Positions 5,059 to 9,994 of a stretch of DNA of 11,028 nucleotides are shown piece by piece. Both the position numbers and the translations under genes were made by a program. Positions within the stretch are counted from its first letter, which is position 1. The number at the start of each line of letters is the position of its first letter. Origin of the DNA: Frankiales bacterium (GTDB taxonomy: Bacteria > Actinomycetota > Actinomycetes > Mycobacteriales > SCTD01); NCBI GenBank assembly GCA_025464695.1, contig JAODNQ010000113.1:1-11028 (forward strand), written 5' to 3'. The notes under the pieces were generated by a model, which was given only the letters and a program-made list of their open reading frames with translations, searched no databases and was not told the origin of the DNA.

Positions 5059-7530
5059 CTAGGCGGGCACCACGTTCACCAGCTTCGGCGCCCGCACCAC
5101 CACGGTCTTCACGCCGCGCCCGTCCAGCGTGCGCACGACGGCCTCGTCGGCCAGCGCCAGCGCCTCGAGCTCGGCCGCGTCGATGTCCGGGGCCACCTCG
5201 AGCCGGGCCTTCACCTTGCCGGCCACCTGCACCACGCACGTGACCGACTCCTCGACGAGCAGCGCCGGGTCGACGTCGGGCCAGGAGGAGTCGTGCACGG
5301 AGTCGCCGGCCTCGACGTCGTGACCGAGCCGGGACCAGACCTCCTCAGCGGTGTACGGCGCGAAGCACGACAGCACGACCGCCAGGGCCGAGACGCCCTC
5401 GCGCAGCGACGCCACACCGGTGGCGCCGGCGTCGTAGGCCTTGCGCAGGGCGGAGGTCAGCTCCATGGACCGGGCGACGGCGACGTTGAACCGCTGCCCC
5501 TCGACCAGCCGGGTGATCTCGTCGACGCTGCGGGCGACGACGCGGTCGACCGCCGGGTCCCGCGCGTCCGACGGCGTCAGCTCCCCGACGTCGGTGCCCA
5601 GCCGGACCACGCGCGCCAGGAACTTCACCGACCCGGACGGCGACACGTCGGCCCAGTCGATGTCCTCCTCCGGCGGTCCGGCGAAGACCATGGTCAGCCG
5701 CACCGCGTCGACGCCGTAGCGCGAGAGCTCCTCGCCCAGGTGGACCATCGTCTCGGGCTTGGACTTGCTCATGGCCTGCCCGCCGTTGATGACCTGCCCC
5801 TGGTTCATCAGTGCGGCGAACGGCTCGACGACGTCGACCATGCCCATGTCGTGCAGCACCTTGGTGAAGAAGCGCGCGTACAGCAGGTGCAGGATCGCGT
5901 GCTCGACGCCGCCGACGTACTGGTCGACCGGCATCCACTGCCGCACGGCCTCCGGGTCGAACGGGCCGTCCTCGTACCCCGGCGAGCAGAAGCGCAGGAA
6001 GTACCAGGACGAGTCGACGAAGGTGTCCATGGTGTCGGTGTCGCGGGTGCCGGGACCGCCGCAGCGGGGGCACGGGGTGTTCACCCAGTCGGTCGCCGCC
6101 GCCAGCGGCGACGTGCCCGCGGGGCGCAGGTCGGTGCCGCGCAGGTCGGGCAGCACGACTGGCAGCTGGTCGTCCGGCACCGGCACGAGCCCGCAGTCGG
6201 GGCAGTGGACGACCGGGATCGGCGTGCCCCAGAAGCGCTGGCGGGACAGCAGCCAGTCGCGCAGCCGGAAGGTCACGGTCGCCTCGCCGGTGCCGCGCTC
6301 GCCCAGCAGGGCGACCGCCCGCGAGATCGCCTCGGCCTTGGGCAGCCCGTCCAGCACGCCGCTGTTGACCAGGAGCCCGTCCCCGGCCGTCGCCACTCCC
6401 GAGACCGCCGGGTCCTCCTCGCCGGTGTCGACGACGACCCGGACCGGCAGCCCGAAGGCCCGCGCGAAGTCGAGGTCGCGCTGGTCGTGCGCGGGCACGG
6501 CCATGATCGCGCCGGTGCCGTACTGCGCCAGGACGTAGTCGGCGGCGTAGACCGGCAGCTCCTCACCGGTCAGCGGGTTGACGGCGACGACGCCCAGGGG
6601 CACGCCGGTCTTCTCCCGCTCGGTGCTCTGCCGCTCGATCTCGGTGAGCCGCCGGACCTGGTCGCGGTAGGCCTCGAAGGCCGCCCGCTGCTCGGGGGCG
6701 CACAGCTCGTCGGCCAGGGCGGCGTCGGCAGCGACGACGAAGAAGGTCGCGCCGTAGAGCGTGTCGGGACGCGTGGTGAAGACGGGGACCTCGCGCTCCC
6801 CGATGCGGAAGCGCACCGTCGCGCCCTCGGAGCGCCCGATCCAGTTCTCCTGCATGCGGAGCACCCGCGACGGCCACGTGCCGCGCAGCTGCTCCATGTC
6901 GTCGAGCAGCCGGTCGGCGTAGTCGGTGATCTTGAAGTACCACTGTGTGAGCTCGCGCTTGGTGACCTGCGCGCCGCACCGCTCGCACGCGCCCTGGACG
7001 ACCTGCTCGTTCGCCAGCACGGTCTGGTCCTGCGGGCACCAGTTGACCGCGCTGCTCTTGCGGTACGCCAGGCCGCGCTCCAGGAAGCGGGTGAACAACC
7101 ACTGCGTCCAGCGGTAGTACTCCGGGTCGCTGGTGTGCAGCCGCTTGGACCAGTCGAAGCTGATCGCGTAGCGCCGGAAGCTGTCGGCCTGGACGTCGAT
7201 GTTCGCGTAGGTCCAGGCGGCCGGGTGCTCCCCCCGCTTGATCGCGGCGTTCTCCGCGGGCAGCCCGAACGAGTCCCAGCCGGGCGGGTGCAGGACGTCG
7301 TAGCCGCGTCGCATCCAGTAGCGGCTGGCGACGTCGGCGATGGCCCACGCCTCCGCGTGACCCATGTGCAGGTCGCCGCTCGGGTACGGGAACATGTCGA
7401 GCAGGTACTTCTTCTCCGCGCCCTCCCGGCGGCCCGCGCGCGACAGGTCGAGCCGGTCCCAGACAGGCAGCCAGCGCTCCTGCGCGGCGTGCGGGTCGTA
7501 GGCGTCGGCCTCGGGCTGCGGGTGGGTCAC
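5059..7530 (-). CDS. leuS: Leucyl-tRNA synthetase, bacterial type
   Basis: Class I synthetase that charges tRNA-Leu in the cytoplasm. The GTG start at 7530 is preferred because GGAG lies five bases upstream; a TTG at 7545 would put that GGAG inside the gene. The product is 823 residues, a little shorter than E. coli LeuS (about 860). It has the HIGH-type motif HMGH (55-58) inside [16 protein letters not shown], and [15 protein letters not shown] with a following CERC. The CP1 editing domain has TTRPDTLYG (threonines 252-253) and [15 protein letters not shown] with the editing aspartate at 349. A second zinc-ribbon-like region has CPDC and CPRC. The KMSKS-type loop reads AMSKS (586-590), with Ala in place of the first Lys. 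The C-terminus ends [10 protein letters not shown], as in the family. Expression is probably controlled by the leader and attenuator upstream. Confidence 0.97.
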
Positions 7531-7535
7531 GTCGT

Positions 7536-7539
7536 CTCC
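7536..7539 (-). promoter_or_regulatory. leuS ribosome binding site
   Basis: GGAG on the minus strand, five bases before the GTG at 7530. It decides the start of leuS and lies just after the U-rich tail of the attenuator hairpin, so only read-through transcripts carry it. Confidence 0.7.
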
Positions 7540-7540
7540 A

Positions 7541-7574
7541 GACAAGGAAGAGGCCCCTGTGCATCACAGGGGCC
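7541..7574 (-). terminator. Attenuator terminator hairpin of leuS
   Basis: In the leftward RNA, GGCCCCTGTG (7574-7565) pairs perfectly with CACAGGGGCC (7561-7552) across a three-base ATG loop, giving a 10-bp GC-rich stem. A pyrimidine stretch with seven T in twelve bases follows at once. It sits between the leader peptide and the leuS ribosome binding site, which is the position of an attenuator and not of a gene-end terminator. Its 5' arm shares five bases (7574-7570) with the antiterminator, so the two cannot form together. Confidence 0.85.
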
Positions 7575-7603
7575 GCGGTCTGAGCTGGTGCTCAGCGCGG
7601 CCC
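7570..7603 (-). promoter_or_regulatory. Antiterminator hairpin of the leuS leader
   Basis: In the RNA, GGGCCGCG plus CTGAGC (7603-7590) pairs with GCTCAG plus CGCGGCCC (7585-7580 and 7577-7570). The loop is ACCA and there is a two-base AC bulge on the 3' side, giving 14 bp in total. The leader stop codon TGA (7594-7592) lies within the 5' arm. A ribosome reaching the stop would cover this arm and leave the terminator free to form. A ribosome held at the Leu codons, just upstream, would let this hairpin form. Confidence 0.8.
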
Positions 7604-7624
7604 GGGGAGCAGCAGGGTTGCCAT
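7592..7624 (-). CDS. leuL: Leucine-rich leader peptide of leuS (10 residues)
   Basis: ATG-started reading frame encoding MATLLLPGPR and a TGA stop, with three consecutive leucine codons (CTG CTG CTC) at residues 4-6. It lies immediately before two mutually exclusive hairpins and 62 bp before leuS. The Leu run directly before the antiterminator arm is what a leucine-sensing leader needs. The peptide itself probably has no function beyond being translated. AGGA lies seven bases upstream and could act as a ribosome binding site, but it falls inside a TAGGAT that looks like a -10 element. The symbol leuL is used by analogy with leucine-operon leaders. Confidence 0.8.
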   Translation of the reverse strand: MATLLLPGPR

Positions 7625-7636
7625 GCGGCGATCCTA
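7622..7636 (-). promoter_or_regulatory. Putative leaderless promoter (-10) of the leuS leader transcript
   Basis: TAGGAT (7636-7631, minus strand) is separated by six bases from the ATG of the leader peptide, so transcription would start at the A of the ATG. No clear -35 is seen; TGCTCA at an 18-bp spacing matches TTGACA at only three positions. The same layout occurs before degV and comEA. Confidence 0.55.
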
Positions 7637-7676
7637 CGGGCCAAGGTCGTCGCATGAGCAGAACAGGGTCCCGCGG

Positions 7677-8558
7677 ATGACCGCCCGCACCGTGACGACG
7701 CCCGACGGGCGCAGCCTGGACGTCGAGGTGTCCGGCGACGACGCCCTGCCGCTGCTCGTCCACCTGCACGGCACTCCGGAGGGCCACCACCTCTCCCCCG
7801 CCCTGGTGGCCGCGGCCGAGCAGGTCGGCGTCCGCCTCGCCGGGTTCGCCCGTCCCGGCTACGCCGGCTCGACCCGCCGTCCCGGTCGTACGGTCGCCGA
7901 CGTCGTCCCCGACGTCCTGACCGTCGTGGACGCGCTGGGCGCGGACCGGTTCGCGGTCGTCGGCGTCTCCGGGGGCGGGCCGCACGCGCTGGCCTGCGGC
8001 GCGCTCGCGCAGGACCGCTGCGCGGCCGTGGCCACGGTGGCCGGCGTGGGGCCCTTCGGGGCCGAGGGGCTGGACTTCCTGGCCGACATGGGCGAGGGCA
8101 ACGAGGTGGAGTTCGCCGCGGCGCTGCAGGGCGAGGACCCGCTGCGCGCCCTCCTCGAGCCCTGGCGCCTCGACATGGTCGGCGACGGGCCGCAGGGCAC
8201 GATCGACGCGATGGCGAGCGTCTTGAGCCCGCCGGACCGCGCGGTCTTCACGGGCGAGCTGGCCGAGCAGCTGCACGCCTCCGTCTCCCTCGCGCTGCGG
8301 GACGGCGTGGACGGCTGGCTCGACGACGACCTCGCGTTCACCGTCGACTGGGGCTTCGCGCTCGCCGACGTCGGGGTCCCGGTCACCCTGTGGCAGGGCG
8401 AGCAGGACCTCATGGTCCCCCCGGCGCACACCCGGTGGCTCGCGGACCGGCTGCCCGGGTCCGAGGCCCGCCTGCTGCCCGACGACGGCCACCTCACCCT
8501 GCTCGTCACACGGCCGGCGGAGGTGCTGGCGGCGCTGGCCGAGGCGCTGCAGGGCTGA
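7677..8558 (+). CDS. Alpha/beta hydrolase
   Basis: Predicted soluble serine hydrolase of the alpha/beta fold; the substrate cannot be told from sequence. The 293-residue protein has the oxyanion-region motif HLHGTPEG (29-36), RPGYAGSTRRPGRTVADVV (59-77), which is typical of small-molecule hydrolases, and the nucleophile elbow GVSGGG with Ser98. The probable catalytic acid is Asp244 in GEQDLMVP and the catalytic His is His272 in DDGHLTL. No signal peptide is seen. I chose the ATG at 7677, directly before TARTVTTPDGR, where the homologous part begins. An in-frame ATG at 7623 would overlap the opposite-strand leader peptide start and adds 18 unlikely residues. AGGG about eight bases upstream is a weak ribosome binding site. 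It is transcribed divergently from leuS and probably alone. Confidence 0.88.
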   Translation: MTARTVTTPDGRSLDVEVSGDDALPLLVHLHGTPEGHHLSPALVAAAEQVGVRLAGFARPGYAGSTRRPGRTVADVVPDVLTVVDALGADRFAVVGVSGGGPHALACGALAQDRCAAVATVAGVGPFGAEGLDFLADMGEGNEVEFAAALQGEDPLRALLEPWRLDMVGDGPQGTIDAMASVLSPPDRAVFTGELAEQLHASVSLALRDGVDGWLDDDLAFTVDWGFALADVGVPVTLWQGEQDLMVPPAHTRWLADRLPGSEARLLPDDGHLTLLVTRPAEVLAALAEALQG

Positions 8559-8577
8559 GCAGGCCGGCCGCGCGGGG

Positions 8578-8586
8578 TTGTCCACA
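8578..8586 (+). promoter_or_regulatory. DnaA-box-like 9-mer TTGTCCACA
   Basis: Exact match to the DnaA box form favoured in high-GC actinobacteria (TTGTCCACA), alone in the gap between the hydrolase and the secreted protein gene. A single copy is not an origin. It could be a regulatory DnaA site or chance. Confidence 0.35.
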
Positions 8587-8614
8587 GGGGCCGCCACACA
8601 GGGCCACGGACCGC

Positions 8615-8638
8615 TACTTTCCGTGCATCCCCGCACGG
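8615..8638 (+). promoter_or_regulatory. Possible -10 element and adjoining inverted repeat before the secreted protein gene
   Basis: TACTTT (8615-8620) fits TANNNT and stands out in this GC-rich gap, but no -35 is seen at 16-18 bp. Directly after it, CCGTGC (8621-8626) and GCACGG (8633-8638) form a perfect 6-bp inverted repeat around ATCCCC. That position would suit an operator or the start of the 5' untranslated RNA. Confidence 0.35.
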
Positions 8639-8664
8639 CGTGCACCGGCACCCGTCGTCGTCGA

Positions 8665-8668
8665 GAGG
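8665..8668 (+). promoter_or_regulatory. Ribosome binding site of the secreted protein gene
   Basis: GAGG six bases before the ATG at 8675. It selects this start over the open frame that continues upstream, and the signal peptide begins directly after it. Confidence 0.7.
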
Positions 8669-8674
8669 TGCTCG

Positions 8675-9994
8675 ATGCTCCCGTCCCCCGCCCGCCCCGC
8701 CGTCCGCCGCACGGCGGCCCGGGTCCTGCTCGCCGGTCTCGTCGCTGCCGGTCTGCCCCTGGCGTCCGGCCTCGCGACGCCCGCCTCCGCGGCCAGCACG
8801 GTCCGCGCGGCGGACCCCGCTCCGACGGCCGCCGGGCGCATGACCGTCGTCAGCAGCGGCAGCCGCCCCAGCGGCGACCGGCTGGTCCTGTTCGGCGAGG
8901 TGCGCAACGACTGGAACCGGGTGGCCTCGACGCCGCGCGTCCACGTCGACCTCCTGGGCGCGAACGGCGCAGTGCTGGCCGGCGAGGACCTCTACACGGA
9001 CCTCAACAAGCTGCTCCCGGGCGAGCACACGACCTTCCGCCAGTCCGTCGCCAAGCCCGCCGGCTACGCCTCGGCCAAGGTCACCAGCGTGACCACCCCG
9101 TCGTCGTACTCGGTGCCGAACCACGGCTTCACCGTCACGCTCACCGGCAACACCGTCGACGGCACCAGCCGCACCCTGACGGGGACGGTCCGCAACGACA
9201 ACACCGCCGCGGCCTCGCTGCCGGCGGTCACGCTGGTGCTGCGCGACGCCGCCGGCACCGTCTACGACTCCGACGACGCCTACCCGAAGACGGCGGACAG
9301 CAGCAGCACGCTCGCCCCCGGGGCGACGGCCAGCTTCTCCACCACCCGCTTCAGCGACGACCCCTACGTGGAGGGCGGGAGCATCAGCGCCGTCGCCGAG
9401 TCCTCGAGCGCCCCCAGTCCCTTCCCGACCGAGCTCGGCCTGTCCGTGCCGAAGCTGGTCAGCGCCGGTGAGGCCGGCACGGTGAAGATCACGGTGCTCG
9501 GCAAGGGCACGCTCGGCGCTGCACCGGCCGGCATCAAGGTGCAGCTGACCGGCCGCGAGGCCCGCCAGCCCGCGTTCCGCCTGCTCCGCACGGTCACCAC
9601 GACGGGCAGCTCGACGGTGTCGTTCGACCTCAAGCCGCAGCGCGACATCCGCTGGCAGGCCAAGGTCCCGGCCGCCGCGAACGCCGTCGCGTCCGCCAGC
9701 GGCTACACGCTGACCCAGGTCGCCTTCGGCGTGTCCACCACCGGCACCACGCGCTCCGGCTCCGGCACCCTCAGCGGCGGCGTCCGCCCGGCCAGCGCCG
9801 GTGCGGTCGTCTACCTGCAGCAGCAGACCGGCGGCGTCTTCCGCAACGTCGCGTCGTACAAGCTCTCCAGCTCGTCGACGTACACCTTCACCGTCCGCAA
9901 GCCGGTCGGTCGCTACACCTACCGCGTCTACAAGCCGGCCGTCACCGGCAACCAGGCCGGCTACGGCCCGGTGATGGTCTACACCGTCTACTAG
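8675..9994 (+). CDS. Secreted protein with two FxLYD-like and two Ig-like beta domains
   Basis: A 439-residue exported protein of unknown function. The signal peptide has a basic start (R7, R11, R12, R16), a hydrophobic core (17-33) and probable cleavage after TPASA (residue 39). Residues 55-140 resemble the FxLYD fold (LVLFGEVRNDWNRVASTPRV, then LLGANGAVL). Residues 152-242 look like a second copy (RTLTGTVRNDNTAAASLPAV, then LRDAAGTVYD). The C-terminal half holds two similar Ig-like strands sets. The first has VQLTGR, then FRLLRTV, then FDLKPQRDIRWQAKVPAA (289-334). The second has VYLQQQ, then FRNVASY, then FTVRKPVGRYTYRVYKPA (379-422). There are no cysteines after the signal peptide, no catalytic motif and no sortase or lipobox signal. 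It is probably a free extracellular or wall-associated binding protein. It is transcribed alone and ends at the strong hairpin downstream. Confidence 0.85.
   Translation: MLPSPARPAVRRTAARVLLAGLVAAGLPLASGLATPASAASTVRAADPAPTAAGRMTVVSSGSRPSGDRLVLFGEVRNDWNRVASTPRVHVDLLGANGAVLAGEDLYTDLNKLLPGEHTTFRQSVAKPAGYASAKVTSVTTPSSYSVPNHGFTVTLTGNTVDGTSRTLTGTVRNDNTAAASLPAVTLVLRDAAGTVYDSDDAYPKTADSSSTLAPGATASFSTTRFSDDPYVEGGSISAVAESSSAPSPFPTELGLSVPKLVSAGEAGTVKITVLGKGTLGAAPAGIKVQLTGREARQPAFRLLRTVTTTGSSTVSFDLKPQRDIRWQAKVPAAANAVASASGYTLTQVAFGVSTTGTTRSGSGTLSGGVRPASAGAVVYLQQQTGGVFRNVASYKLSSSSTYTFTVRKPVGRYTYRVYKPAVTGNQAGYGPVMVYTVY

What the first reader, a model, noticed from the sequence alone, without database searches (positions are those of the whole stretch)
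7531..7624. Leucine leader peptide with two mutually exclusive hairpins in front of leuS
Directly visible are MATLLLPGPR with three adjacent Leu codons, a 14-bp hairpin whose 5' arm contains the leader stop, and a 10-bp terminator hairpin plus pyrimidine tail that shares bases 7570-7574 with the first. Ribosome-mediated attenuation by leader peptides is established for amino-acid biosynthetic operons, while leuS in Firmicutes is usually under T-box control. Here the same logic would let low charged tRNA-Leu raise synthesis of the synthetase that charges it. The design is minimal, with no separate pause hairpin. I do not know whether this leuS version has been described.
Basis: partly seen in the sequence, partly recalled or inferred. 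Interest (0 to 1): 0.78.

Follow-up and report, generated by a model that had tools for sequence, protein, structure and literature searches.

The report
Leucine-sensing attenuator before leuS
A ten-amino-acid leucine-rich peptide gene followed by a terminator hairpin sits in front of the gene for the enzyme that charges leucine tRNA, so a shortage of charged leucine tRNA should switch that enzyme on; the same kind of switch was already reported in Streptomyces, and here it is found in many other actinomycetes.

Summary
On the minus strand, MATLLLPGPR* (7624-7592), a 14-pair hairpin P1 (7603-7570) and a 10-bp terminator (7574-7552) precede leuS (GTG 7530); P1 and terminator share GGCCC 7574-7570. 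Leu run, P1, terminator and promoter position are conserved in homologous leuS leaders (93 distinct ones analysed), and a covariance model built without the window finds it at E 1.1e-6. Best explanation: ribosome-mediated transcription attenuation of leuS by charged tRNA-Leu. No RNA or expression data exist for the window.

The kind is known: predicted for two Streptomyces (Seliverstov 2005); a leaderless LeuL2 (MRAVRLLLSEPR) precedes leuS in S. lividans (Droste 2021).

Added here: (1) a -10 box 6-8 nt before the peptide's start codon in 93 of 93, so the peptide mRNA is probably leaderless family-wide; (2) P1 starts about one ribosome footprint after the first Leu codon; (3) P1 and terminator abut and, at equilibrium, coexist in most homologs, so true exclusivity is not the family rule; (4) the leader serves two LeuS lineages and has an ilvB cousin; (5) the last Leu codon is the rare CTT in 87 of 93, unexplained.

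The parts
7631..7636 (-). -10 box TAGGAT, 6 nt before the leader ATG; predicts +1 at 7624, i.e. a leaderless leader peptide
   Evidence: sequence; TAnnnT ends 6, 7 or 8 nt before the start codon in 64, 27 and 2 of 93 leuS leaders (the model that found many of them includes this box). In the 29 loci + window picked by Leu run + terminator, 26 have 6, 3 have 7, 1 has 8
7592..7624 (-). leader peptide frame MATLLLPGPR*
   Evidence: related peptides (..LLLPEPR..LLLPGPR..LLLS..LLLT) before leuS in relatives
7607..7615 (-). regulatory Leu codons CTG CTG CTC
   Evidence: run of exactly three Leu codons in 84 of 93 leaders
7570..7603 (-). hairpin P1 (14 pairs, 2-nt bulge), candidate antiterminator; its 5' arm contains the leader stop codon
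   Evidence: 5 of 7 pairs of the conserved P1 core have compensatory changes in 75 leaders
7552..7574 (-). intrinsic terminator hairpin, 10 bp
   Evidence: 5 of 7 pairs of the conserved terminator core have compensatory changes
7541..7551 (-). pyrimidine tail TCTTCCTTGTC of the terminator
7570..7574 (-). GGCCC shared by the P1 3' arm and the terminator 5' arm
7536..7539 (-). Shine-Dalgarno GGAG of leuS
   Evidence: sequence
5059..7530 (-). leuS, leucyl-tRNA synthetase, 823 aa, GTG start (start codon inferred from the Shine-Dalgarno)
   Evidence: TIGR00396 leuS_bact 897 bits; Pfam editing and anticodon-binding domains

Best explanation
A ribosome-mediated transcription attenuator of leuS that senses charged tRNA-Leu. 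Transcription probably starts on the A of the leader ATG, so ribosomes load on the leaderless RNA end. With enough charged tRNA-Leu the ribosome runs through three Leu codons to the stop codon and covers the 5' arm of hairpin P1; P1 cannot form, the terminator 7574-7552 forms and transcription ends near 7545. When charged tRNA-Leu is short, the ribosome waits with the first Leu codon in its A site; its downstream edge then lies where P1 begins, P1 folds as it is transcribed, takes up GGCCC 7574-7570 of the terminator's 5' arm and lets RNA polymerase read into leuS. Shown by sequence and comparison: the parts, their conservation and their spacing. Inferred: start site, translation of the leader, premature termination, direction of response. 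Family-wide, P1 would act mainly by lying against the base of the terminator (0-1 nt apart) and reaching a few bases into its arm while the RNA is being made, not by an equilibrium choice between two folds.
For: Parts and non-chance placement. Homologs: model R1 (trained on 26 loci + window) hits upstream of leuS in 31 of 80 loci and the window at E <= 3.3e-5, with no hit at that level elsewhere in 644 kb; 5 of those 32 were not in the training set. 63 of 64 loci brought in by the genome search (3 of them repeats of earlier loci) have LeuS just downstream; the 64th ends 342 bases after the match. Base-pair covariation: 10 of 14 pairs with two-sided changes, 98.3% of cells paired against 44.5-55.3% when slid (alignment fitted to the model); on the free MAFFT alignment 8 of 14 predicted pairs. 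P1 arms pair better with their own partner than with swapped ones (0 of 2000 permutations). Geometry: the six outer P1 pairs stand in 93 of 93 leaders with the ribosome at the first Leu codon, in 1-2 of 93 at the last Leu codon, in 0 of 93 at the stop (P1 was defined in the first state). In the window: P1 base 0.90 at first Leu and 0.00 at stop; before the terminator's 3' arm is made, full P1 forms at -27.8 kcal/mol. Independent experiment on the same kind of leader: S. lividans LeuL2 is transcribed leaderless and followed by a hairpin and U stretch before leuS (PMC8079986, passages).
Against: No transcript, 3' end, ribosome or leucine-response data for the window. At equilibrium the terminator is predicted to form with the ribosome at the first Leu codon as well (window P 0.86-0.96 for footprint edges A+10 to A+14; only with 11 nt of tail is the full-P1 state lower, -34.2 against -33.6); across the family P(terminator) is below 0.5 in only 6 of 93 in that state, 7 of 93 at the stop, so switching must be kinetic or steric. 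With the P1 arms cut off before the shared bases, the window's own P1 (-12.8) is weaker than with other leaders' arms (mean -18.5). Window tail is a weak U-tract. In S. coelicolor, as cited in PMC1262725, mutating leader codons of ilvB had no effect and of leuA an effect not consistent with attenuation.
Confidence: 0.85

Rival explanations
1. Plain terminator with a constitutive leak: the hairpin-terminator pair limits leuS expression or insulates it from upstream transcription, and the Leu run is fortuitous.
For: Terminator predicted stable in all ribosome states.
Against: Leu run of three in 84 of 93 leaders, last codon CTT in 87 of 93, fixed Leu-to-P1 spacing, -10 box placed on the start codon of the mini-frame in 93 of 93; mini-frame + terminator + -10 found 25 times before leuS and 0 times elsewhere.
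Confidence: 0.05
2. Leader-dependent control by another route: the peptide or the ribosome position governs Rho access or RNA polymerase pausing (P1 as a pause hairpin released by the ribosome) rather than an antiterminator.
For: P1 and terminator coexist at equilibrium and abut with 0-1 nt in 86 of 93 leaders, an arrangement that recalls the 1:2 and 3:4 hairpins of the trp leader (recalled); no conserved third pairing was found: Leu-codon region against terminator 3' arm is no better than swapped (338 of 2000 permutations as good).
Against: Conserved intrinsic terminators with T-rich tails make Rho unnecessary; no pause data.
Confidence: 0.08
3. T-box or riboswitch sensing uncharged tRNA-Leu or leucine directly.
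For: leuS in Firmicutes is usually under T-box control (as stated for synthetase genes in PMC1262725).
Against: Leader is only 94 nt to the leuS start; no Rfam match at gathering score in the window or in 7 homologous loci; only two chance-level matches at E 0.35 and 0.6 in 7450-7720.
Confidence: 0.02

Closest known systems
leuS attenuators of Streptomyces avermitilis and S. coelicolor (Seliverstov et al. 2005, PMC1262725; parts 1 and 2 of 3 of the text read, figures not held)
   Same: Leader peptide with Leu codons, antiterminator and terminator hairpins in front of leuS.
   Different: Reported for two Streptomyces only; leaderless start, abutting hairpins, the two LeuS lineages and the CTT codon are not described in the text read.
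LeuL2 leader peptide MRAVRLLLSEPR of leuS in S. lividans TK24 (Droste et al. 2021, PMC8079986; passages seen)
   Same: Leaderless Leu-Leu-Leu leader peptide, hairpin and U stretch, leuS. Several fetched leaders encode this very peptide (L102, L110-L114).
   Different: LeuS downstream in L102 and L110-L114 is of the divergent type (about 39-42% identical to the window's over the matched N-terminal part); the window's P1 shares five bases with the terminator.
ilvB leaders of actinobacteria (Seliverstov 2005; Mtb ilvB1 attenuator, PMC13236596, passages seen)
   Same: Short frame of Leu/Val/Ile codons, hairpin whose 5' arm is at the stop codon, adjacent ACCCCTC..GAGGGGT terminator; model R1 scores them 29-37 bits.
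   Different: Codons and P1 sequence differ; a -10 box 6 nt before the start was found in 6 of 12.
Polycysteine leaderless short frames of mycobacteria (Canestrari 2020; seen only as a reference title)
   Same: Leaderless short frame used as amino-acid-responsive attenuator.
   Different: Cysteine; termination mode differs (recalled).
Enterobacterial trp/his/leu/pheST attenuators (recalled; pheST named in PMC1262725)
   Same: Ribosome stalling logic; synthetase gene controlled by its own amino acid in pheST.
   Different: Has a separate 1:2 pause hairpin and strong 2:3 against 3:4 exclusivity; here no pause hairpin and little or no shared sequence in most homologs.

Membership tests
Actinobacterial leuS leader-peptide attenuator (Seliverstov 2005 / LeuL2) | Short frame with a run of Leu codons between promoter and leuS | tested here: met
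Actinobacterial leuS leader-peptide attenuator (Seliverstov 2005 / LeuL2) | Intrinsic terminator between leader frame and leuS | tested here: met
Actinobacterial leuS leader-peptide attenuator (Seliverstov 2005 / LeuL2) | Hairpin with its 5' arm downstream of the Leu codons that can oppose the terminator | tested here: met
   P1 shares 7574-7570 with the terminator
Actinobacterial leuS leader-peptide attenuator (Seliverstov 2005 / LeuL2) | Homology of the element to known members, window left out of the model | tested here: met
   R2 built on 39 leaders without the window (L102 and L110, which encode the S. lividans peptide, included): 26.6 bits, E 1.1e-6; a divergent member, most others score higher
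Actinobacterial leuS leader-peptide attenuator (Seliverstov 2005 / LeuL2) | Leaderless transcription of the leader frame | tested here: inconclusive
   -10 box at the right distance but no -35 match and no TSS data
Actinobacterial leuS leader-peptide attenuator (Seliverstov 2005 / LeuL2) | leuS read-through rises when charged tRNA-Leu falls | not testable with these tools
   needs RNA or reporter data
Classical enterobacterial attenuator | Separate 1:2 pause hairpin before the antiterminator | tested here: not met
   no further hairpin in the 94-nt leader fold; the Leu-codon region instead pairs with the terminator 3' arm in the ribosome-free fold
Classical enterobacterial attenuator | Antiterminator and terminator mutually exclusive | tested here: inconclusive
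   full forms exclusive in the window, energies -34.2 and -33.6; terminator favoured at equilibrium with a 7-nt tail; 40 of 93 homologs share no base
T-box riboswitch | Match to the Rfam library (T-box family included, recalled) | tested here: not met
   0 matches at gathering score
LEU element (leuA pseudoknot) | Leu codon run pairs with the Shine-Dalgarno of the gene; pseudoknot | not tested
   the window has a terminator and controls leuS, not leuA; pseudoknot not searched

The most novel reading that the evidence does not exclude
A widespread actinomycete family of leaderless branched-chain attenuators (leuS, with an ilvB cousin) that switches without exclusive base pairing: the ribosome decides whether P1 stands, and P1, packed against the base of the terminator within 0-1 nt, stops the terminator from closing in the RNA exit channel. 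The regulatory leader has been kept, or has travelled, across a replacement of the leuS gene itself, since the same leader heads two LeuS lineages, both also in the same leuS-degV-comEA-comEC slot.
Probability: 0.35. Interest if true: 0.6.

Novelty: new member of a known kind. Interest (0 to 1): 0.4.

Why it matters
It shows that the enzyme charging tRNA-Leu is probably controlled by its own product in many actinomycetes, not only in the two or three Streptomyces reported. The tight spacing (first Leu codon to P1 = one ribosome footprint; P1 to terminator = 0-1 nt) makes a simple, testable model of attenuation on a leaderless RNA, and the poor fit to exclusive pairing raises a question about how abutting hairpins influence termination. 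The near-invariant rare CTT codon and the sharing of one leader by two LeuS lineages are concrete, checkable puzzles.

Tried and rejected
Leu-codon region pairing with the terminator's 3' arm (1:4) as a family antiterminator: not supported, own mean -9.60 against -9.48 for swaps, 338 of 2000 permutations as good. In the window alone it is strong (-16.9, best of 93 partners) and removes the terminator in the ribosome-free fold (P 0.00); 8 of 93 leaders fall below 0.5 in that state.

CTT as the 'hungry codon': does not fit simply, because a ribosome held at the last Leu codon already covers the base of P1.

T-box or other Rfam family: no match. Three candidates of the first script (L034, L065, L080) were judged chance and dropped. 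Of 98 leuS leaders given to the analysis script, L030, L158 and L160 failed (no terminator or no start found) and 2 were dropped as identical, leaving 93. The ilvB rows of the terminator computation are not usable (the script set the terminator out of register: basal pairs mean 0.08), so only their P1 result is used. 1 of 10 paper searches and most structure tools were left unused; structure prediction was not needed.

Full report
What is there. The finding is confirmed base by base on the minus strand. Order: -10 box TAGGAT (7636-7631), leader frame MATLLLPGPR* (7624-7592) with CTG CTG CTC at 7615-7607, hairpin P1 (7603-7570), terminator (7574-7552) with a pyrimidine tail to 7541, Shine-Dalgarno GGAG (7539-7536), leuS from GTG 7530 to 5059. 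The protein is a leucyl-tRNA synthetase (TIGR00396, 897 bits; Pfam), followed by degV, comEA and comEC. The terminator is the only such site in 7000-8000. The simple sigma-70 scan found no promoter there, since it needs a -35 box.

Is it more than chance? A three-Leu mini-frame with a terminator behind it and a -10 box 6-7 nt before its start codon occurs in the 480 nt before leuS in 25 of 81 sources and nowhere else in the same 1.29 Mb. A covariance model built on 39 leaders without the window (R2) has the window's leader as its best match at E 1.1e-6, against 11.8 bits for the next. The window is a divergent member: P1 is only partly aligned in that match.

Homologs. Of 80 leuS loci from one scan, 31 carry the leader at E <= 3.3e-5 with model R1; 26 of them trained the model. 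Among the others are Microbacteriaceae (Leifsonia, Agromyces, Rathayibacter, Curtobacterium), Planktophila-like genomes, Thermobifida, Nocardiopsis, Kocuria and Nocardia macrotermitis; L008, L027, L047 and L068 hold too little upstream DNA to tell. In whole genomes, R1 matches 210 of 394 sampled from the class of G001 (the genome of L001) and 143 of 200 from its order, at E <= 1e-3, a threshold that also admits ilvB leaders. R2 matches 25 of 296 sampled from the phylum, so the element is mostly confined to that class. In the family of G439, the nearest reached, 16 of 24 genomes match and 14 of these matches lie before a LeuS 77-82% identical to the window's. Of 64 loci show LeuS directly downstream and the remaining one (L098) ends 342 bases after the match.

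Leaderless start. TAnnnT ends 6, 7 or 8 nt before the leader start codon in 64, 27 and 2 of 93 leaders. Many were found with a model that includes this box, but in the first set, picked by Leu run and terminator, the numbers are 26, 3 and 1 of 30 (the script preferred candidates with the box where there was a choice). In S. lividans the corresponding LeuL2 peptide was found by RNA-seq to be transcribed leaderless (PMC8079986, passages). For the window this is inference.

Structure. On a free MAFFT alignment of 27 leaders RNAalifold predicts two hairpins, with two-sided changes in 8 of 14 pairs. On 75 leaders aligned to the model (75 of about 98 held), 10 of 14 pairs have such changes and 98.3% of cells are paired, against 44.5-55.3% with partners slid. 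P1 arms fit their own partner better than swapped ones in all of 2000 permutations; by that measure, which cuts off the shared bases, the window's own P1 is weaker than average (-12.8 against -18.5).

Geometry. With the ribosome modelled as covering all RNA up to 12 or 13 nt past the first base of its A-site codon, the outer six pairs of P1 stand in 93 of 93 leaders at the first Leu codon, 2 or 1 of 93 at the last Leu codon and 0 of 93 at the stop. P1 was defined in the first state, so the first number is partly by construction; the fall at the last codon and the stop is not. In the window the values are 0.90, 0.54 and 0.00. P1 starts 13-14 nt after the first Leu codon in 91 of 93 (the block itself forbids less than 13). 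The stop codon, by contrast, may lie inside the conserved arm (CTT-ACC-TAG-CCGC) or beyond it (CTT-CCC-GAG-CCG-CGC-TGA): what is held constant is the Leu-to-P1 spacing.

Exclusive or abutting. In the window the full forms are exclusive. Before the terminator's 3' arm exists, full P1 forms at -27.8 kcal/mol and holds five of ten bases of the terminator arm. Once the 3' arm and 11 nt of tail exist, full P1 (-34.2) and shortened P1 + terminator (-33.6) are balanced. With only 7 nt of tail the terminator is favoured, P 0.86-0.96 for footprint edges A+10 to A+14, and 1.00 at the stop. Across 93 leaders the terminator forms at equilibrium in nearly all in every state (below 0.5 in 6 at the first Leu codon and 7 at the stop), and P1 lies 0 nt from it in 63, 1 nt in 23, 2-3 nt in 7, while P1's own span varies from 20 to 58 nt. 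P1 folded before the terminator is complete takes up 1-6 bases of the terminator's arm in 53 and none in 40. So equilibrium exclusivity is not the family rule; if P1 is the antiterminator it works kinetically or sterically. This is my inference.

Codon. The last Leu codon is CTT in 87 of 93 leaders, whereas CTT is 52 of 2155 Leu codons in 32 of the leuS genes. The window is an exception (CTC; its leuS has no CTT among 70). Since a ribosome at that codon already disturbs P1, I have no good explanation.

Two LeuS lineages and ilvB. Of the 63 LeuS genes behind whole-genome hits, 21 are of the window's type and 42 of a divergent type (the sample of strongest hits, with three repeats). The divergent type scores 523-582 bits with the window's LeuS, less than the bacterial LeuS structures 1h3n (811), 6q89 (702) and 3zgz (670) do (Thermus, Neisseria and E. 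coli by recall). One genome (G212) has both types, each with its own leader. In 9 regions read, the slot leuS-degV-comEA-comEC was found with 2 of 6 divergent-type and 2 of 3 window-type genes. Twelve further, weaker matches (29-37 bits) all lie before acetolactate synthase large subunit genes (NCBIfam on five of them).

Known or new. Seliverstov et al. 2005 (PMC1262725; parts 1 and 2 of 3 read) predicted classical attenuators before leuS in S. avermitilis and S. coelicolor. Droste et al. 2021 (PMC8079986, passages) describe LeuL2 in S. lividans. Searches of the open library for leuS or leucyl-tRNA synthetase attenuation elsewhere listed no other report, but subscription journals are mostly absent. 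Rfam has no family for it that matches. Verdict: a new member of a known kind, with family-wide features that I did not find described.

Noticed in passing
L147-L157, L159: Twelve weaker matches of the leuS-leader model lie before ilvB: leader frames such as MRRILVVLQRDC* with an AGCGCG..CGCGCT hairpin next to an ACCCCTC..GAGGGGT terminator. leuS and ilvB leaders look like cousins.
   Followed up: partly
L083-L145 (e.g. L110-L141 against L085-L089); L145 and L146 in genome G212: The same leader heads two LeuS lineages about 40% identical; G212 has both, each with its own leader, and both lineages can sit in the leuS-degV-comEA-comEC slot.
   Followed up: partly
last Leu codon of the leaders; window 7609-7607: CTT in 87 of 93 leuS leaders although CTT is 2.4% of Leu codons in leuS genes; the window has CTC. 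Unexplained.
   Followed up: partly
window 7624-7552: Without a ribosome the window's leader folds with the Leu-codon region paired to the terminator's 3' arm around P1, which abolishes the terminator (P 0.00); this is not a family rule.
   Followed up: yes
window 7677-8558, plus strand: Divergent alpha/beta hydrolase gene whose start (ATG 7677 or the upstream in-frame ATG 7623) lies within about 55 nt of the leader start, so the two promoters must overlap or lie very close.
   Followed up: no
window 8390-9994, plus strand: Frame with a signal-peptide-like start and a weak DUF3426 match (E 4e-7), function not worked out.
   Followed up: no
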